Shown in pieces: positions 1 to 17,036 of a DNA stretch of 22,221 nucleotides. The stretch comes from a virus, in IMG/VR virus record IMGVR_UViG_3300021376_000390, positions 1 through 22,221 of that record. One strand, written 5' to 3'. Position 1 is the stretch's first letter; each line of letters starts with the position of its first letter. The position numbers were made by a program, and so were the translations under genes. The notes beneath the pieces are model-generated. The model had not been told where the DNA came from. It did no database searches and was given only the letters and a program-made list of their open reading frames with translations.

Positions 1-2
1 CA

Positions 3-1040
3 TCTGGTGCTACTGGTGCCACTGGTGCCACTGGTGCTTCAGGTTCATCAGGAACTTCTGGTGCTGCTGGTGCCACTGGTGCCACTGGTGCTTCAGGTTC
101 ATCTGGAACATCTGGTTCATCGGGAACAAGAGGAACTTCTGGATCTTCAGGTTCATCAGGAACATCTGGTGCCGCTGGTGCCACTGGTGCCACTGGTGCT
201 TCAGGTTCATCAGGAACTTCTGGTGCTGCTGGTGCCACTGGTGCCACTGGTGCTTCAGGTTCATCAGGAACATCTGGTGCTACTGGTGCTACTGGTGCAA
301 CTGGTGCTTCAGGTTCATCAGGTTCATCAGGAATATCTGGTGCTGCTGGTAGTAGTGGAACAAGTGGAACTGGATTTACAACAATATCAGGTGCTTCAAA
401 CGATAGAATACTAACATCCGATGGTACATCAAATGCTGCTGTTGCAGAAACAAATTTAGCATTTAATGGTTCAACACTTGTTGTTACCGGAAATGTTACT
501 GCAATGTCATTTACTGGTTCACTTCAAGGAACTGCATCTTTTGCAACTACCGCTTCATTTGTTAGTAAGAATAGTATTACAGGTAGTCTTGGAACATTAT
601 TACCGTTTGCTGTTGTTGAAAAAACCACAGATGAAACAGTCTTAAATAATGGAGCACTTCAAGGTGATGACGAATTATTTTATAGTATGTCAGCTAATGC
701 AATATATTACTTTAATTTTATACTTATAGTAGAAAGAACAAATGCATTTACGGATCCAGGTATAAGAATAGCAGTTGATGATGCAAATAGTGGAACAGGT
801 TATTGGGAACTTTTTACAGTGAGTCCTGGTAATTATTTCTTGACAGATGGTTACAGTGATAACTTTTTACAAAACCTAGGGACGGATGCATCAAAACCAA
901 GAGTATTTAAACTTACTGGAGCAGTAAAACCAACATCGGCTGGATCATTAGCACTAAATTGGTGTCAATATACAGAAACTCCATTGACTGGTACACGTAT
1001 AAAAAAAGGAAGTAGATTGGAAATTTTCAAGGCATCATAA
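3..1040 (+). CDS. Collagen-like repeat fiber protein, C-terminal part (5' truncated)
   Basis: The frame is open from the window edge to TAA at 1038-1040; the gene begins upstream, and the ATG at 504 is an internal Met. From 6 to 374 it encodes an uninterrupted Gly-X-Y run rich in Ala, Thr and Ser, the collagen-like triple-helix pattern common in phage tail fibers. It is followed by a linker with the motif TGSLQGTASFATTASF, a short repeat style seen in fibers of large marine and freshwater phages, and then a C-terminal domain of about 150 residues, presumably globular (tip or receptor-binding). No enzymatic motif is visible. The next gene overlaps its stop (TAATG). A structural fiber or appendage protein is the best reading; the exact position on the virion is unknown. 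Confidence 0.85.
   Translation, partial: SGATGATGATGASGSSGTSGAAGATGATGASGSSGTSGSSGTRGTSGSSGSSGTSGAAGATGATGASGSSGTSGAAGATGATGASGSSGTSGATGATGATGASGSSGSSGISGAAGSSGTSGTGFTTISGASNDRILTSDGTSNAAVAETNLAFNGSTLVVTGNVTAMSFTGSLQGTASFATTASFVSKNSITGSLGTLLPFAVVEKTTDETVLNNGALQGDDELFYSMSANAIYYFNFILIVERTNAFTDPGIRIAVDDANSGTGYWELFTVSPGNYFLTDGYSDNFLQNLGTDASKPRVFKLTGAVKPTSAGSLALNWCQYTETPLTGTRIKKGSRLEIFKAS
33..356 (+). repeat. 54-bp tandem repeat coding 18-residue collagen-like units
   Basis: Six consecutive units start at 33, 87, 141, 195, 249 and 303, exactly 54 bp apart. A typical unit reads GAS GSS GTS GAA GAT GAT. The third unit and part of the second are diverged, while the units at 33 and 195 are almost identical at DNA level. 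The period is a multiple of three codons, so gain or loss of units keeps both the reading frame and the Gly register. The DNA similarity makes slippage or recombination between copies likely. Confidence 0.9.
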
Positions 1041-2643: not shown

Positions 2644-2902
2644 ACTTAATCCAGTTGCTCAAACTTTTAGTGGTTTTAGTGGTAGAATATCATCCAAGCG
2701 TGTGATGATGTTTTTTTCTTTTGGTGTTATGATATTTATGGCAATAGTATCAACCTTTTATGATAAGAAAGTTGAACAATTTATATTCGATGGTTTTCTT
2801 TACATAGTAGTTGGTAGTCTTTTTTCAGTAGCATCAGAACAATTTGCAAACAAATTTACAAAGATAGAAAATGGAGAAGGTGATGAAATCAATAATAATT
2901 GA
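2636..2902 (+). CDS. Small two-TM membrane protein, holin candidate
   Basis: 88 aa. The start is TTG, supported by a strong AGGAGA Shine-Dalgarno at 2625-2630 with 5-nt spacing, and it overlaps the upstream stop by 8 bp. There are two hydrophobic segments, about residues 23-41 and 48-66, separated by a short charged loop (YDKKVEQF), with a basic N-terminus (RISSKR) and an acidic, Asn-rich C-terminal tail. Length and topology fit a class II holin or another small phage membrane protein. It overlaps the next gene start. The holin assignment rests on size, topology and phage context, with no recognised signature. Confidence 0.6.
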   Translation: MNKLNPVAQTFSGFSGRISSKRVMMFFSFGVMIFMAIVSTFYDKKVEQFIFDGFLYIVVGSLFSVASEQFANKFTKIENGEGDEINNN

Positions 2903-3458
2903 AAGGGCAGTTCCTACAAATAAAAAACTTTATTCAAGAATAAAATCAAGAATTAAAAGTAAATATAAAGTATGGCCAAGTGCATATGCTTCAGGTGCTC
3001 TTGTTAAAGCATATAAAGCTGCGGGTGGTGGATTTCGTAATGTAAAAGAAACTATTGTAAATCCCGGCTATCAACTTGAAGGATATGCTACAAATCCTTG
3101 TGGTAAAATTACTGAATTACATTTTCGTATTCAAGAAAATGAACCTAACATGATGAATGAAGCTGAATATCGTGGTAGAAAAGTTAGTTTAGGAAAACCG
3201 TTTAGAACGCCCGGTGGTCCAAAAAAGTTTTCTGTTTATGTTAAAAAATCAAATGGTAATATCGTAAAAGTAAACTTTGGTCACAAGGGTGAGGGTGGTA
3301 AGAAAACAATGCGTATTAAAAAGAGCAATGCAGCCCGAAGAAAGTCTTTCCGTGCTCGTCACAATTGTCAATCACCAGGACCAAGACATAAGGCAAGATA
3401 TTGGTCATGCCGTTTTGGATGGCCAAGTTCGGGTAAAGGTGCAATAGATAAGACTTAA
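2883..3458 (+). CDS. Conserved basic phage protein with WPSAYASGALVKAYK and RKSFRARHNC modules
   Basis: 191 aa. I chose the ATG at 2883 rather than the in-frame ATG at 2871 because GGAGAAGG (2873-2880) is a strong SD placed for 2883 and the earlier ATG would lie upstream of it. Two conserved phage modules are visible: an N-terminal KYKVWPSAYASGALVKAYK helix and a C-terminal segment with ARRKSFRARHNC followed by GPRHKARYWSCRF. The central part is beta-like (KKFSVYVKKSNGNIVKVNFG). The protein is very basic. The modules are widespread in T4-like phages of aquatic origin but have no established function that I know of; nucleic-acid binding or a virion role is possible. Confidence 0.75.
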   Translation: MKSIIIERAVPTNKKLYSRIKSRIKSKYKVWPSAYASGALVKAYKAAGGGFRNVKETIVNPGYQLEGYATNPCGKITELHFRIQENEPNMMNEAEYRGRKVSLGKPFRTPGGPKKFSVYVKKSNGNIVKVNFGHKGEGGKKTMRIKKSNAARRKSFRARHNCQSPGPRHKARYWSCRFGWPSSGKGAIDKT

Positions 3459-5082: not shown

Positions 5083-5427
5083 ATGAATAAAACAACAGAA
5101 AATATCGTTAAAGAAATCATCAGAGAGTATATCTCACAATATATTCGTGAAGGAAAAAAGCCGAGTGGTGGTTTAACTGGTTGGTTTAGAGAAAGATGGG
5201 TTGATATTTCTCGTAAGAAAAAAAGTGGTGGACATCCACCATGCGGCGCCTCTGCTGGTAGTAAGGCCAGAAAAGGTGGTAAGAGAGCATATCCAAAATG
5301 TGTTCCTGCAGCAAAAGCCGCTTCGATGTCATCAAAACAAAAAAGAAGTGCCGTAACACGAAAGAGAAAAAAGGGTGCAACTGCTCGTGGTAAGGCAAAA
5401 ATGGTTTCAACTTATACAAAAGGTTAA
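5083..5427 (+). CDS. Conserved basic phage protein with GLTGWFRERWVDISRKKK motif
   Basis: 114 aa, highly basic. An N-terminal amphipathic helix (residues 1-24, ending YIREG) is followed by a well-known phage/giant-virus module with the pattern WFxERWVDISRKKKSGG, HPPCG, YPKCVPAAKAASMS, and a Lys/Arg-rich C-terminus. Conserved Cys, Gly and Pro residues suggest a small metal-stabilised or compact nucleic-acid-binding domain. Function is not established. No SD is seen before the ATG, and no alternative start lies before the conserved module, so the start is accepted despite the missing SD. Confidence 0.75.
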   Translation: MNKTTENIVKEIIREYISQYIREGKKPSGGLTGWFRERWVDISRKKKSGGHPPCGASAGSKARKGGKRAYPKCVPAAKAASMSSKQKRSAVTRKRKKGATARGKAKMVSTYTKG

Positions 5428-12047: not shown

Positions 12048-12644
12048 ATGCCGGCATTATCACAACAGCAACAGAAGTTAATGGGGCTTGCACTTGCTTA
12101 CAAAAGAGGTAAAGTTGCTTCAAGTGATGTTAGTAAATCTGTAAAGGATTTGGCGTCATCAATGTCTGAAAAAGAATTAGAAAAATATGCTGGAACATCA
12201 CATAAAGGTCTTCCTAAAAAAGTTGGTGAAACAAAAACATCAATGACAAGAGAAGAAATAAATAAACTTGTTTCGGATGCTGTTCAAGAAGTAATGAACG
12301 AAAAATTTAGTACAAAAGTTCTTACATCTGAACAAAAACAACAATATATTGAGGCAATTTCAAAATACAATCAATACAGAGAGGTAGTTCATCGTTCAAA
12401 GGCACTACCAGAAATAGTTTCTGAAATAAAAAGACTTGTTGAATTTGCAAGTAAAAACATGGTTGAGGAGTCTGGCGATTGGTTTGAAGGTGTATCACAT
12501 AGAAGAAACTCAAAAAGATTGAGAGAATCTGTAAATGAATTTCAAAAAATATCGGAAAAAATTGTTAAATTACAAAGAATCCTGGAGTCTATCTACGAGA
12601 ACATAGGTAAACAACTCGGAACATTTTACGAAATAAAAAAATAA
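12048..12644 (+). CDS. DUF3008-type protein with helical C-terminal domain
   Basis: 198 aa, with a strong SD (GGGAGA). Residues 1-58 match the widespread phage motif family I know as DUF3008: MPALSQQQQKLMGLALAYKR, a Ser/Lys-rich spacer, then SMSEKELEKYAGTSHKGLP. A central helix (MTREEINKLVSDAVQEVMNE) and a C-terminal coiled region (from about 100) follow; the latter includes ESGDWFEGVSHRRN and several (L/I/V)-x-E-S sites. No function is established. Placement between protease and scaffold suggests an internal head or core component. Confidence 0.75.
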   Translation: MPALSQQQQKLMGLALAYKRGKVASSDVSKSVKDLASSMSEKELEKYAGTSHKGLPKKVGETKTSMTREEINKLVSDAVQEVMNEKFSTKVLTSEQKQQYIEAISKYNQYREVVHRSKALPEIVSEIKRLVEFASKNMVEESGDWFEGVSHRRNSKRLRESVNEFQKISEKIVKLQRILESIYENIGKQLGTFYEIKK

Positions 12645-12657
12645 AGGAAAAATGGTT

Positions 12658-12885
12658 ATGTCAGACAGAGTTTATACCAGTTCAAAACCTGCTCATGTTA
12701 AAGTTAAGGCAGGTGGAATGAATGTAGATACAATGATTAAGGTATTTAAACGTAAGGTAAAAGAAGCCGGTATTCTTGAAGAATATAAAAATCGCATGGA
12801 ATACATTAAACCATCAAAAAGAAAATCTGAAAAAAGAAATGCTGCTGTAAGAAGACAGAGAAAACTCGATTCAGAAAACATTTAA
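12658..12885 (+). CDS. rpsU: Ribosomal protein bS21 homologue (phage-encoded)
   Basis: 75 aa from the ATG at 12658, or 77 from the ATG at 12652. The SD (AAAGGAAA) is 9 nt from the second ATG and only 3 nt from the first, so I favour 12658. The body matches bS21: VKVKAGGMNVDTMIKVFKRK, then VKEAGILEEYKNRMEYIKPS, then a basic tail KRKSEKRNAAVRRQRK. bS21 sits on the 30S platform by the anti-SD region of 16S rRNA and assists initiation. bS21 homologues are known from many aquatic phages and are thought to exchange into host ribosomes. It is unusual that it lies within the head operon, immediately before the ART gene. Confidence 0.88.
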   Translation: MSDRVYTSSKPAHVKVKAGGMNVDTMIKVFKRKVKEAGILEEYKNRMEYIKPSKRKSEKRNAAVRRQRKLDSENI

Positions 12886-12895
12886 TGGAGATAAA

Positions 12896-14083
12896 ATGAC
12901 CTTTGCTAGTATTGAAAAACTAATCCGTGAGGAAACACGGAAAGTTATTGAAAACCTGGAAAGGTCTTTTTCGTTATCAGAAGAAGACGAAAAACCTGCA
13001 AGCGAAGATCCTGAAAAAATGCTTGTTGTTAATAAAGAAAGTGGAAAGTCGTATTACATAAGTAAAAAAAGTTTTGATCCAGCAAAACATCAAAAATCTG
13101 CTCCAAAAGAAACTACAAAAGAAGAAGAAGAAACTTCTTCAGAAGAAACACCAACTGATTCTGAAGAAGAAATTAAAACCGATGATTCAAAAAAAGAAGA
13201 TTCTGCAACTTCTGATGAAGAAAAACCAAAAGGTGATGCGGGTGATAAAGCAGAAAAAAAACCAGAACAAAAACCAAAAGAACCAAATGAAGAAAAAACT
13301 GGATTAAAAACTGTTGGTTTTTTGAATAAAGTTGATGCAGAAAAATTAGATACCAAAACAGACAATCTATATCCAAAAACACGTGAACAACTGTTGGAAT
13401 ATGATTATGAAGATATAATTGATATGTATGATTTAAGATTTGATGAAGATGGGGTAAATTTTAAAAAGTTATACAAACGAGCAGAAATGATTGCAGTATC
13501 AAAGTATTCTTTAATAACACCAAAATCAATAGATAAAGAAACTCTAATGGCATTGGGTTATTATTATTTGAACACTGAAAGAATAATTAACATATTGAGA
13601 TTTGCTAAACCAAGTTTAACAAAACCTGAAATACAAAAACAATTAAAGTTAGGTAAACCAAAAGAAGGCGATAAAAGGGAAAAACAATATAAAAGTGCAA
13701 TGAATGCATTTACTATTCGTGAAATGGACTATGCATTTGACGAACAATTACAAAAATTAGAATATAATATAGTTTCATATCGTTCCGTAGAAAATGAAAA
13801 AGTATTACAAATGTTTATTGATGCAGGACAATGGGTAGATAAATCATTTGTAACAACATCATTAAATCCTTTAATTACAGAAGGAACTGGAAAAAAGAGA
13901 TTGCCATTATTTGAATTTTTAATTCCTGCTGGAACTTCTATACTAACATTACCATGTCACTCAAATGATTATTGTCACGAAACAGAGGTAACACTTCCAA
14001 GAAATTGTAGATATACTATACAAGGATTTAACGATACGAGAAATATTTACAAGATATTAGTGGAGCAAAACTATGGCCGATGA
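12896..14083 (+). CDS. ADP-ribosyltransferase with acidic N-terminal extension (Alt-like candidate)
   Basis: 395 aa, with GGAG 5 nt before the ATG. Residues 1-70 include a short helix (IEKLIREETRKVIENL) and a phage module LVVNKESGKSYYISKKSFDP. Residues 70-135 are a low-complexity Glu/Lys/Ser/Thr tract. Residues 275-395 carry an R-S-E class ART domain: Arg296 in VSYRSVENE, T-T-S at 320-322 in FVTTSLNP, a strand FEFLIPAGTSILTLP, and the ExE pair E362/E364 in HETEVTLPRN. Such enzymes transfer ADP-ribose from NAD+ to protein. Its place between protease and scaffold, plus (L/I)-x-E sites, suggests a protein packaged in the head and injected, as T4 Alt is; the target is unknown. Confidence 0.82.
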   Translation: MTFASIEKLIREETRKVIENLERSFSLSEEDEKPASEDPEKMLVVNKESGKSYYISKKSFDPAKHQKSAPKETTKEEEETSSEETPTDSEEEIKTDDSKKEDSATSDEEKPKGDAGDKAEKKPEQKPKEPNEEKTGLKTVGFLNKVDAEKLDTKTDNLYPKTREQLLEYDYEDIIDMYDLRFDEDGVNFKKLYKRAEMIAVSKYSLITPKSIDKETLMALGYYYLNTERIINILRFAKPSLTKPEIQKQLKLGKPKEGDKREKQYKSAMNAFTIREMDYAFDEQLQKLEYNIVSYRSVENEKVLQMFIDAGQWVDKSFVTTSLNPLITEGTGKKRLPLFEFLIPAGTSILTLPCHSNDYCHETEVTLPRNCRYTIQGFNDTRNIYKILVEQNYGR

Positions 14084-14201
14084 AAAGAAAATAGATACAA
14101 AAGACCGAAATAAGAGATACATCTATACAGAAAATGATGCAAAATCAATCTTTCAGTATGATCCTACAAAAAAACCTATCGAAAAAATAGAAAAAAAATA
14201 A
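14073..14201 (+). CDS. 42-aa charged hypothetical protein overlapping ART 3' end
   Basis: The ATG at 14073 lies in the +1 frame relative to the ART gene, overlapping its last 11 bp, and has GGAG at 14062-14065 with 7-nt spacing. The product begins MADEKKIDTKDRNKRYIYTE and ends at TAA 14199-14201. It is Lys/Glu-rich with a small aromatic core (RYIYTENDAKSIFQYDP). The good SD and coupled overlap support expression. No family is recognised. Confidence 0.6.
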   Translation: MADEKKIDTKDRNKRYIYTENDAKSIFQYDPTKKPIEKIEKK

Positions 14202-14309: not shown

Positions 14310-15380
14310 ATGAATGATTTATTGAAAGAAGCTATTGCAGATGCAAAAGCCGTTAAGGAAGTAGCATTAGCAAACGCTAAATTGGCATTGGAAGAAGCAT
14401 TCACTCCGCGTTTGCAGTCTATGCTTTCCAAAAAGTTGGCAGAGGAGGCAGAAGCCGAAGAGCCAGTTGAGGAAGGTGAGGGTGAAGAAGAAGCACCCGT
14501 AGAAGAATACGGATTTTATAGCGAAGGTGATGATGAAGAACCTGCTATGGAAGAAGGTGAAGGCGAAGAAGAAAAGGTTGAAGAAGCCGAAGAAGAAGAA
14601 AAGGTTGAAGAAGCTGAAGGTGAAGAAGAAGAAAAAGTTGAAGAAGGTGAAGATGAAGAAGAACCAATGGATGAAGAATTGATGGAGATTATTCGTCAAT
14701 TAGAAGAAGACATTGATTCATCCGAAATCGGTGGCGGTGACAACAAGAAACCTTCCGCAGTTGCATCTGATGACAGCACAGAAGATAAGGGTGAAAAACT
14801 TGTTCAACTTGTTGAAGAAGAAGATGAAGATTCCGAAGAAGTTGCTGAAATCAAAGAAATTCTCCGTGCTCTTCGTGAAGAAGAAGAAGGTGAAAAGGCA
14901 GAAGAAAAAGTTGAAGAAGGTGAAGATGAAGAAGAAGTAGACATCAAAGAAGTTCTCCGTGCTCTTCGTGAAGAAGAAGACGAAGAAAAAGTTGAAGAAG
15001 CTGAAGAAGAAAAGGAAAAGGAAGTGGCAGAAGCAAAACTTCGTGAAGCTTATGCTGTAATTTCTTTCTTGCGTTCTAAAATCAATGAAGTCAATCTTTT
15101 GAACTCAAAATTGCTCTTCTCTAACAAGTTATTCCGCAAGCATTCACTTAACGAAAAACAAAAAATGACTGTTATCGAAAACTTTGATCGTGCATCAAGT
15201 CTTCGTGAAGTCAAATTGGTCTATGCTACACTTTGCGAATCGCTTAGAACAACAAAGGTTAAACAAATTAAAGAATCCTTTGCATCTAAACCAACCGCAA
15301 GCACACGCCCATCTAAACCAATCTTGAATGAAGGTGATGATATGGCAAATCGTTTACGTAAATTAGCAGGTTTGAAATAA
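14310..15380 (+). CDS. Prohead scaffold protein (gp22-like)
   Basis: 356 aa. I start it at ATG 14310 because GGAG (14300-14303) sits 6 nt upstream; an in-frame TTG at 14298 precedes the SD and is unlikely. The N-terminal helix MNDLLKEAIADAKAVKEVAL and the LALEEAFTPRLQSML segment are typical of gp22-like scaffolds in large T4-type phages. Residues about 46-240 are extremely Glu-rich with internal repeats. The C-terminal helical domain (EVNLLNSKLLFSNKLFRKHS and SLREVKLVYATLCESLR) is the conserved part. It forms the inner core around which the capsid assembles and is later degraded by the gp21-like protease; the (L/I)-x-E sites (for example ILNEG) fit this. It lies 18 bp before the capsid gene. 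Confidence 0.88.
   Translation: MNDLLKEAIADAKAVKEVALANAKLALEEAFTPRLQSMLSKKLAEEAEAEEPVEEGEGEEEAPVEEYGFYSEGDDEEPAMEEGEGEEEKVEEAEEEEKVEEAEGEEEEKVEEGEDEEEPMDEELMEIIRQLEEDIDSSEIGGGDNKKPSAVASDDSTEDKGEKLVQLVEEEDEDSEEVAEIKEILRALREEEEGEKAEEKVEEGEDEEEVDIKEVLRALREEEDEEKVEEAEEEKEKEVAEAKLREAYAVISFLRSKINEVNLLNSKLLFSNKLFRKHSLNEKQKMTVIENFDRASSLREVKLVYATLCESLRTTKVKQIKESFASKPTASTRPSKPILNEGDDMANRLRKLAGLK
14847..14981 (+). repeat. Imperfect duplication inside scaffold gene
   Basis: Two nearly identical segments, at 14847-14888 and 14940-14981, encode EIKEILRALREEEE and DIKEVLRALREEED, 93 bp apart. Between and around them are short Glu-rich repeats of the KVEEGEDEEE and KVEEAEEE type. A more diverged relative (MEIIRQLEED) lies earlier, near 14683. 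Internal duplication has lengthened the acidic region. Confidence 0.7.
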
Positions 15381-15398: not shown

Positions 15399-17036
15399 AT
15401 GAGTATACAAAATTTATTAAATACTTCTGGGAACCCCCACAAGCAACTTATCAAAGAAAACAAGCAGATTGTCAATAAATGGGCAAAAACTGGTCTTCTT
15501 GATAATTTGAAAAACGAATATGAAAAGAACTCTATTGCAGTTCTTCTCGAAAATCAAGCAAAACAACTTATCGAAGAATCAAACAGAACAGGTACAGCAG
15601 CTGGTTCAGAAGAATGGGCTGGTGTTGCACTTCCATTGGTTCGCCGTATTTTCTCTGAAATTGCTGCGAAAGATTTTGTTTCTGTTCAACCAATGAACTT
15701 GCCTTCTGGTCTTGTGTTCTTCTTGGACTTCAAATACGGAACAGCACAACCTGGTTTCACAGCAGGATCTGGTAAAGATTCACAAGCTGATTCAGTATTT
15801 GGTGTAACAGGTAAAGATGCAAAAGATGCTGATCCTTCAGGTGGTCTTTATGGTGCAGGTCGTTTCGGTTATTCAATCAATGAAGCCGAAGGTACATTTA
15901 CAAAAGCTGCTGCATTGGCTGCAAACGCGTTTGTAACAGGATCTGTATCACATTCAACACCATCATTGTTCCAGCATGACACAGAGTTCCAAAATGCTTA
16001 CTCTGCATCACTTGCAGCTGGTAACATTATGACTGTAACTGTTCAATCTGCATCATTGTCTACACCTGATCTAGAAGCGGTTCGTGCTTTCAAAGTATCT
16101 GGTTCAACAATTCTTGGTTATTTCCCACAATACACAACAACTGCAAACAATGGTTCAACCATTACTTTCGTTGTTTCTGCTTCTGCTGCTCCTGCAACAG
16201 TAGGTATTGCTTATGAGAAACAACCAACTGCTACAACACGTGGTGACTTTGAAGAAAATGCAGCAGGTGACAATTTGGGTATACCAGAAATCAATCTCGA
16301 ATTGCGTTCAGAATCCATAGTTGCTAAAACACGTAAGTTGAAGGCAGTATGGACACCTGAATTTGCACAAGATTTGAATGCATACCACTCAATTGATGCT
16401 GAAGCTGAATTGACATCTATGTTGTCCGAATACATTTCACAAGAAATTGATTTGGAAATTCTTGATATGTTGATTAAGAATGCACAAACAACAGAAAGAT
16501 GGTCAGCCCGTATCGGTCGCACATATGATGCTTCTACAAGTGCATTTGGTGACTATTCTACAAACCAAGCTGCTGCTTCTGCTTACAATCAACAAACATG
16601 GTTCCAAACACTTGGCACAAAGATTCAAAAAGTATCAAACGTAATTCATCAGAAAACACTTCGTGGTGGTGCAAACTTCCTTGTATGTTCTCCACAAGTT
16701 GCTACAATACTTGAATCAATGCCTGGCTATGCAGTTGATGGTGAAGGTATGAAATTCGCAATGGGTGTTCAAAAAGTTGGTCAATTGAATGGCCGTATCA
16801 CAGTTTACAAGAATCCTTATATGCTCGAAAATCAAATTCTTGTAGGTTTCCGTGGAACACAATTCCTCGAAACTGGTGCTGTGTATGCTCCATACATTCC
16901 ACTTGTAATGACACCGTTGGTATACGATCCAACGAACTTCACACCAAGAAAAGGCGTGATGACTCGTTATGCGAAGAAGATTGTTCGTCCAGAGTTCTAT
17001 GGTCTTATCCAAGTAGATTCTCTCGGTGATGTCTAA
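15399..17036 (+). CDS. Major capsid protein (gp23-like)
   Basis: 545 aa, with AAGGA as SD. The mature part matches T4 gp23: LPLVRRIFSEIAAKDFVSVQ, then QPMNLPSGLVFFLDFKYGT, the central LKAVWTPEFAQDLNAYHSID, and the C-terminal APYIPLVMTPLVYDPTNFTP and MTRYAKKIVRPEFYG. It forms the hexamers of the head (HK97 fold). The first about 60 residues are a charged helical delta region; QLIEESN at 56-62 gives a likely maturation cut after Glu59 or Glu60, close to Glu65 in T4. Codon choice looks more C-ending than in its neighbours, as expected for a very highly expressed gene. A strong terminator follows. Confidence 0.96.
   Translation: MSIQNLLNTSGNPHKQLIKENKQIVNKWAKTGLLDNLKNEYEKNSIAVLLENQAKQLIEESNRTGTAAGSEEWAGVALPLVRRIFSEIAAKDFVSVQPMNLPSGLVFFLDFKYGTAQPGFTAGSGKDSQADSVFGVTGKDAKDADPSGGLYGAGRFGYSINEAEGTFTKAAALAANAFVTGSVSHSTPSLFQHDTEFQNAYSASLAAGNIMTVTVQSASLSTPDLEAVRAFKVSGSTILGYFPQYTTTANNGSTITFVVSASAAPATVGIAYEKQPTATTRGDFEENAAGDNLGIPEINLELRSESIVAKTRKLKAVWTPEFAQDLNAYHSIDAEAELTSMLSEYISQEIDLEILDMLIKNAQTTERWSARIGRTYDASTSAFGDYSTNQAAASAYNQQTWFQTLGTKIQKVSNVIHQKTLRGGANFLVCSPQVATILESMPGYAVDGEGMKFAMGVQKVGQLNGRITVYKNPYMLENQILVGFRGTQFLETGAVYAPYIPLVMTPLVYDPTNFTPRKGVMTRYAKKIVRPEFYGLIQVDSLGDV

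What the first reader, a model, noticed from the sequence alone, without database searches (positions are those of the whole stretch)
12896..14083. ADP-ribosyltransferase embedded between prohead protease and scaffold genes: possible injected Alt-like effector
The C-terminal domain carries R296, TTS 320-322 and ExE 362-364, the R-S-E ART signature. T4 packages Alt ART in the head, processes it with gp21 and injects it to modify host RNA polymerase. Here the gene lies in the head operon itself and has an N-terminal helix with LIRE plus a long acidic tract like core proteins. Sequence similarity to Alt is not evident, so it may be an independently acquired effector using the same delivery route.
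Basis: partly seen in the sequence, partly recalled or inferred. Interest (0 to 1): 0.75.

Follow-up and report, generated by a model that had tools for sequence, protein, structure and literature searches.

The report
Phage head-operon Alt-like ADP-ribosyltransferase cassette

Summary
12896-14083 encodes 395 aa with R296, TTS320-322 and E362-T-E364. Without its acidic linker the C-terminal domain matches Pfam ADPrib_exo_Tox above cut-off, PHROG 802 (Alt-like ART) and T4 Alt itself (hhalign 9e-7). AlphaFold2 gives pLDDT 89, and the top PDB fold matches are C3/VIP2/iota-type ARTs. Delivery is not shown, but comparison supports it. All 35 distinct ART N-termini have L/I-x-E (the T4 gp21-type cleavage motif) at the leader/linker junction: residues 27-29 here, 8-10 in basal relatives, whose leaders (MIKLKxILxE, MYEYVEYILE) match the T4 capsid-targeting sequence MKTYQEFIAE in register. 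The gene was gained once, is inherited with the head operon, is under purifying selection, and is always followed by a coupled 41-62 aa partner ORF (57/57 loci), absent where the ART is absent. Caveats: R296 is K in several relatives; no virion proteomics or activity data exist. Likely function: capsid-delivered arginine mono-ADP-ribosyltransferase acting early on a host protein. Novelty: new variant of a known kind.

The parts
12896..14083 (+). ART gene (395 aa): leader + acidic linker + R-S-E ADP-ribosyltransferase domain
12896..12982 (+). N-terminal leader, residues 1-29, predicted capsid-targeting propeptide (predicted cut after E29)
   Evidence: L-x-E at 27-29 (28-30 in one) in every distinct long-leader homologue, middle residue varying S/Y/H/A/N/T/I; replaced by 10-residue MIKLKxILxE or MYEYVEYILE in relatives
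12911..12931 (+). T4-CTS-like motif I-E-K-L-I-R-E (residues 6-12)
   Evidence: pattern phi-x-x-phi-[IL]-x-E enriched near N-termini in this phage group; T4 gp24, IPII and IPIII as positive controls; the I-R-E itself is not conserved
12983..13303 (+). acidic low-complexity linker, residues 30-136, hypervariable in relatives
   Evidence: pI 4.65
13304..14080 (+). ART domain with N-terminal helices, residues 137-395
   Evidence: Pfam PF03496, phrog_802 Alt-like, AF2 pLDDT 89, Foldseek C3/VIP2/iota
13781..13783 (+). R296 (R of R-S-E; K in several relatives)
13853..13861 (+). T320-T321-S322 (STS motif)
13979..13987 (+). E362-T-E364 (ExE, ARTT-loop motif of arginine-specific ARTs)
   Evidence: aligned with Vis arginine ART
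14073..14201 (+). 42-aa partner ORF overlapping the ART stop codon; always with the ART
   Evidence: coupled in 57 of 57 ART loci with readable downstream DNA, absent in ART-less L136
11374..12045 (+). T4 gp21-type prohead protease, the predicted processing enzyme
   Evidence: PF03420 E=4e-30, phrog_207
12048..12644 (+). DUF3008 + head-core-like protein
   Evidence: PF11450; homologues in distant relatives begin MKLKxLLxES
12658..12885 (+). bS21 (RpsU) homologue
   Evidence: PF01165 E=5e-13; a bS21-like ORF precedes the scaffold in relatives with or without the ART
14310..15380 (+). acidic scaffold (gp22-like)
   Evidence: position and composition; conserved next to MCP
15399..17036 (+). major capsid protein (gp23-like) with conserved LI[E/S]E|[S/A] junction

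Best explanation
The gene encodes a divergent Alt/VIP2-family mono-ADP-ribosyltransferase that is made late with the head proteins and targeted to the prohead core by its N-terminal leader. The phage's gp21-type prohead protease trims it at L27-S28-E29|E30. It then stays in the DNA-filled head and is ejected with the DNA to ADP-ribosylate arginine(s) of host protein(s) at the start of infection, as T4 Alt does. The coupled 42-aa protein probably serves the ART (folding, packaging or restraint in the producing cell). Shown here by computation: ART family and fold, catalytic motifs, conserved leader and cut motif, single acquisition, purifying selection, obligate partner ORF. Inferred: packaging, cleavage, injection, catalysis, arginine specificity. 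The target is unknown; host RNA polymerase is only an analogy.
For: ART: Pfam 4.2e-6 above cut-off; phrog_802 Alt-like 4.2e-5 for the window, 3e-11 for relative L129; hhalign to T4 Alt 1.9e-6 and 8.7e-7 with R, STS and ExE aligned; the solved arginine ART Vis at about 1e-3; AF2 pLDDT 89, pTM 0.87; listed top PDB folds all ARTs; viral fold hits include T4-type RNAP ADP-ribosyltransferases. Delivery: L/I-x-E at the leader end in 35/35 distinct N-termini, and basal leaders MIKLKxILxE/MYEYVEYILE match T4 IPIII MKTYQEFIAE at the residues needed for targeting (4, 7) and processing (8, 10) (PMC9026906); T4 Alt itself is cut at ITE-6 and LTE-619 (PMC5694885); tag-like motif enriched at N-termini, P 1e-6 to 1e-8 in the larger contigs, and it finds gp24, IPII and IPIII in T4. 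Location between protease and scaffold in all ART loci. Domain dN/dS 0.06-0.17. Single gain with the head operon, one loss; divergence tracks the protease, rho 0.86.
Against: No virion proteomics, cleavage or enzyme data. The residue after the predicted cut is acidic (E30), unlike the A/S after the MCP site. R296 is K in several relatives and L130 has both R->K and E->D, so catalysis may be altered in some. The tag-motif test is statistical and about one hit in seven is expected by chance; two control phages gave 2/118 hits, so against them the excess is only about 4-fold with p 0.03-0.05. Host uncertain.
Confidence: 0.68

Rival explanations
1. The ART is made late but not packaged: it acts in the producing cell late in infection (like T4 ModA/ModB in not being injected), and its leader only docks it to the head core or membrane.
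For: Late-gene position; no proteomics. bS21 beside it also suggests late host-takeover functions (PMC9723584).
Against: Leader with T4-CTS register and conserved L-x-E junction; no profile similarity to ModA or ModB but clear similarity to Alt.
Confidence: 0.14
2. The protein is now mainly structural: a core or scaffold-associated head protein with a reused, non-catalytic ART fold.
For: R296K in several groups and E364D in L130; acidic linker like scaffold proteins; K296 copies are still under purifying selection.
Against: STS and ExE kept in nearly all; clean loss in L136 and absence in Immutovirus and the more distant collinear phages surveyed show it is dispensable for head assembly.
Confidence: 0.1
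3. ART plus the 42-aa ORF is a toxin-antitoxin-like or superinfection/defence cassette carried in the head operon, acting in the infected cell and not delivered by virions.
For: Obligate, translationally coupled partner.
Against: No PADLOC match; conserved leader and cut motif have no role in this model; vertical inheritance with head genes.
Confidence: 0.08

Closest known systems
Escherichia phage T4 Alt (PHROG 802)
   Same: R-S-E ART domain with aligned R, STS and ExE (hhalign 8.7e-7); L/I-x-E cut motif near the N-terminus; T4-type head with gp21 protease
   Different: 395 instead of 682 aa; no recognised T4 Alt N-terminal region, instead a leader and acidic linker; gene lies between protease/bS21 and scaffold rather than next to gene 30; coupled partner ORF
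MuF-ART, portal-ART and other head-neighbourhood ARTs of phages (Iyer et al. 2022, PMC9503650)
   Same: Alt/VIP2-family ART encoded with head genes and proposed to be packaged
   Different: stand-alone protein with a T4-CTS-like, predicted cleavable leader, not a fusion to a structural protein
T4 internal proteins IPI-III (capsid targeting sequence MKTYQEFIAE)
   Same: leader register: hydrophobic 4 and 7, I/L 8, E10 in the basal relatives; cleavage motif
   Different: enzyme cargo; in the window's own clade the leader is 29 residues and the motif is shifted
VIP2/C3/iota-type and Vis ARTs
   Same: fold and R-S-E motifs
   Different: phage head-operon protein; very low sequence identity (13-16%)
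bS21-encoding Bacteroidetes phages (Chen et al. 2022, PMC9723584)
   Same: bS21 among TerL, portal, protease and MCP genes in freshwater phages
   Different: there bS21 is on the opposite strand; here on the same strand, and that paper does not mention an ART

Membership tests
ADPrib_exo_Tox / R-S-E ART superfamily | score above the curated Pfam cut-off | tested here: met
   26.7 bits vs 23.4
ADPrib_exo_Tox / R-S-E ART superfamily | R, STS and ExE catalytic motifs | tested here: met
   R296, T320-S322, E362/E364 in the window; R->K and E->D in some relatives
ADPrib_exo_Tox / R-S-E ART superfamily | ART fold | tested here: met
   AF2 pLDDT 89; top Foldseek hits ARTs, E to 1e-7, TM normalised by target up to about 0.6
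ADPrib_exo_Tox / R-S-E ART superfamily | NAD+-dependent ADP-ribosylation | not testable with these tools
   no assay
T4 Alt-like (PHROG 802) | profile similarity to the Alt ART domain | tested here: met
   phrog_802 4.2e-5 / 3e-11; hhalign 8.7e-7; ModA 0.08, ModB 0.5
T4 Alt-like (PHROG 802) | T4 Alt N-terminal region (about residues 1-370) | tested here: not met
   only T4 Alt columns 455-589 align; 395 aa with a linker instead
T4 Alt-like (PHROG 802) | N-terminal propeptide with gp21-type L/I-x-E site | tested here: met
   motif in 35/35 distinct N-termini; actual cleavage not tested
T4 Alt-like (PHROG 802) | C-terminal propeptide cut (LTE-619 in T4) | tested here: inconclusive
   an L-V-E lies at 388-390, but inside the last predicted strand
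T4 Alt-like (PHROG 802) | presence in virion and injection | not testable with these tools
   needs proteomics
T4 Alt-like (PHROG 802) | modifies RNA polymerase alpha | not testable with these tools
   target unknown
T4 capsid-targeting-sequence cargo | 10-residue leader with hydrophobic 4/7, I/L 8, E10 | tested here: inconclusive
   met exactly in Mel-JY01 and L129-L135; shifted by 2 in the window, where the I-R-E is not conserved and the conserved L-x-E is at 27-29

The most novel reading that the evidence does not exclude
A two-gene injected-effector cassette: a capsid-delivered Alt-family ART with a dedicated, translationally coupled 41-62 aa partner that keeps the enzyme silent (or escorts it into the core) in the producing cell. 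It would be one item of a larger arsenal in these phages in which unrelated enzymes, including other ART-like proteins, carry the same T4-type MIKLKxLLxE leader.
Probability: 0.3. Interest if true: 0.75.

Novelty: new variant of a known kind. Interest (0 to 1): 0.55.

Why it matters
It extends the T4 Alt paradigm (enzyme packed in the head, trimmed by the prohead protease, injected) to a widespread group of mostly uncultivated aquatic phages. It also gives a sequence rule (T4-type leader plus L-x-E) that predicts which phage proteins are injected. One isolated relative, Mel-JY01, makes the prediction testable by simple virion mass spectrometry.

Tried and rejected
Full-length Pfam, PHROG and PDB sequence searches found no ART; cutting off the acidic linker fixed this. 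AF2 on the full protein with close relatives failed (pLDDT 45); the domain with divergent relatives succeeded. IRE at 10-12 was first considered as the cut site and dropped, because relatives have IRK/IRD there while L-x-E at 27-29 is invariant. Idea that the leader helix IIREE is a proteome-wide tag: only a few hits; the broader T4-register motif worked. A scan of bacterial and archaeal genomes gave no relative. A scan with Mel-JY01's ART found no further homologues. PADLOC negative. Considered and rejected: independent non-homologous ART (refuted by profiles), ModA/ModB relationship, decaying gene (dN/dS 0.06-0.17). T5 controls could not be fetched; N4 and lambda were used.

Full report
Observation. 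Window 12896-14083 (+) is a 395-aa ORF. Upstream are a T4 gp21-type prohead protease (PF03420, 4e-30), a DUF3008-containing protein and a bS21 gene (PF01165, 5e-13); downstream are a 42-aa ORF, an acidic scaffold and the gp23-like major capsid protein.

Is it an ART? Full-length searches gave nothing, but the C-terminal 259 residues without the acidic linker match Pfam ADPrib_exo_Tox above its curated cut-off (4.2e-6; 13 of 17 relatives) and PHROG 802, 'Alt-like RNA polymerase ADP-ribosyltransferase' (4.2e-5; a divergent relative 3e-11). Profile comparison with T4 Alt gives 1.9e-6 and 8.7e-7 with R, STS and ExE aligned, against 0.08 for ModA and 0.5 for ModB. In the PDB the profile finds the arginine-specific Vis ART (about 1e-3). 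AlphaFold2 on the domain gives pLDDT 89 and pTM 0.87; the listed top PDB matches are C3, Certhrax, CDTa, iota and VIP2 ARTs, and viral matches include several T4-type RNAP ADP-ribosyltransferases. This is therefore a divergent member of the Alt/VIP2 family, contrary to 'similarity to Alt is not evident'. ExE suggests arginine as acceptor (family knowledge).

Relatives. About 60 fetched loci (some of them overlapping fetches of the same contig) and the isolate Microcystis phage Mel-JY01 carry the gene at the same place. Flavobacterium phage immuto is collinear but lacks it. In a protease tree the ART loci, with Mel-JY01, form one clade with a single ART-less member, L136, where bS21 is followed directly by the scaffold. 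ART and protease divergence correlate (rho 0.86) and the domain has dN/dS 0.06-0.17. So it was most simply gained once, is inherited with the head operon, is selectively maintained, and has been lost at least once.

Catalytic residues. T321 and E362 are invariant, but R296 is K in L006/L009-L012, L030, L060 and L130, and L130 has D for E364. K296 copies are under the same purifying selection. Activity may differ or be lost in some.

Leader and cut site. T4 prohead protease cuts after Glu at L/I-x-E; the IPIII capsid targeting sequence MKTYQEFIAE uses residues 4 and 7 for targeting and 8 and 10 for processing (PMC9026906; the sequence itself is read from T4 DNA), and Alt is cut at ITE-6 and LTE-619 (PMC5694885). 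In 35 of 35 distinct ART N-termini an L/I-x-E sits at the leader/linker junction. In the window's clade it is residues 27-29, with L and E fixed and the middle residue S, Y, H, A, N, T or I (28-30 in one). In basal relatives it is residues 8-10 of a ten-residue leader (MIKLKTILLE, MIRLKNILVE, MYEYVEYILE) that matches the T4 targeting sequence in register, followed by the same kind of linker (DEKPxSExPDKMLV). The nearer I-R-E at 10-12 is not conserved. I therefore predict a cut after E29 in the window (mature 42.3 kDa). The MCP shows the same kind of junction (LI[E/S]E|[S/A]), though the ART has an acidic residue after the cut.

Is the leader a general tag? The pattern phi-x-x-phi-[IL]-x-E starting at residue 4 picks out four T4 proteins: gp24, IPII, IPIII and gp61.1, which shares the IP-like N-terminus. 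Starting at residues 3-8 it is 7-9 times more frequent than background in single larger contigs of this group (P 1e-6 to 1e-8) and about 8 times in immuto (2e-8). N4 and lambda had 2 of 118, so the excess over controls is about 4-fold and only nominally significant. Tagged proteins include other ART-like proteins (ART-PolyVal and HYD1 hints, below cut-off), an alpha/beta hydrolase and a DHH-like protein. This supports a T4-like cargo system but single cases can be chance.

Partner gene. In all 57 ART loci with enough downstream sequence (overlapping fetches included), a 41-62 aa ORF with a conserved R-x-[FY]-x-Y-[TS]-x-x-D motif starts at or overlapping the ART stop codon. It is absent from L136 and matches no Pfam, PHROG or PADLOC family significantly. 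It is an obligate companion, plausibly folding, packaging or restraining the ART.

Mechanism and known work. Best reading: late synthesis, targeting to the prohead core by the leader, trimming by the gp21-type protease, ejection with the DNA, mono-ADP-ribosylation of host protein arginines. Iyer et al. 2022 already proposed that head-neighbourhood and MuF-fused ARTs are packaged (PMC9503650), so the concept is known. New here are this family, its T4-register leaders with conserved cut motif, the bS21-ART-partner-scaffold arrangement and the obligate small partner. Host is likely Bacteroidota by relation to Immutovirus and bS21 phages (PMC9723584), but Mel-JY01 is recorded from Microcystis.

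Noticed in passing
window 12658-12885; L136-L200 loci: A bS21-like gene lies just upstream of the scaffold in nearly all the T4-like phages surveyed, whether or not the ART is present, on the same strand as the head genes (in Chen et al. 2022 it is on the opposite strand).
   Followed up: partly
window 12048-12644; L138, L144, L153, L166, L179, L191: The protein after the protease has a DUF3008 N-terminus here, but in distant relatives the homologous protein begins MKLKxLLxES; DUF3008 may be an alternative head-targeting module.
   Followed up: no
L083:6614-8767 (contig G003), L085:5249-5824, L093:10276-12715 (Mel-JY01): Small proteins starting MIKLKxLLxE, several with weak ART-PolyVal or Tox-ART-HYD1 matches: a candidate set of further injected ARTs.
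   Followed up: partly
L120-L122 (Flavobacterium phage immuto): Several unrelated proteins share the N-terminus NFDLKKFLVENKLTxNS, another possible capsid-targeting leader.
   Followed up: no
window 2871-3458 and 5083-5427: Two basic DUF5872-type proteins with MKSIIIE|R and IVKEIIRE|Y starts, possible internal DNA-binding head proteins.
   Followed up: no
window 13004-13081 (ART residues 37-62): A conserved module K-[MI]-L-V-x-N-K-x-[ST]-G-x-x-Y-Y-I-x-K-x-x-F-[DN]-P-x-x-H between leader and linker, present in basal and many crown members but missing in others (L022, L024-L029, L033, L034, L037-L039).
   Followed up: no
window 1-414: Repetitive coding stretch at the window start (PLVPLV/HQWHQ-type repeats in the listed frames), possibly a collagen-like tail protein read out of frame.
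   Followed up: no
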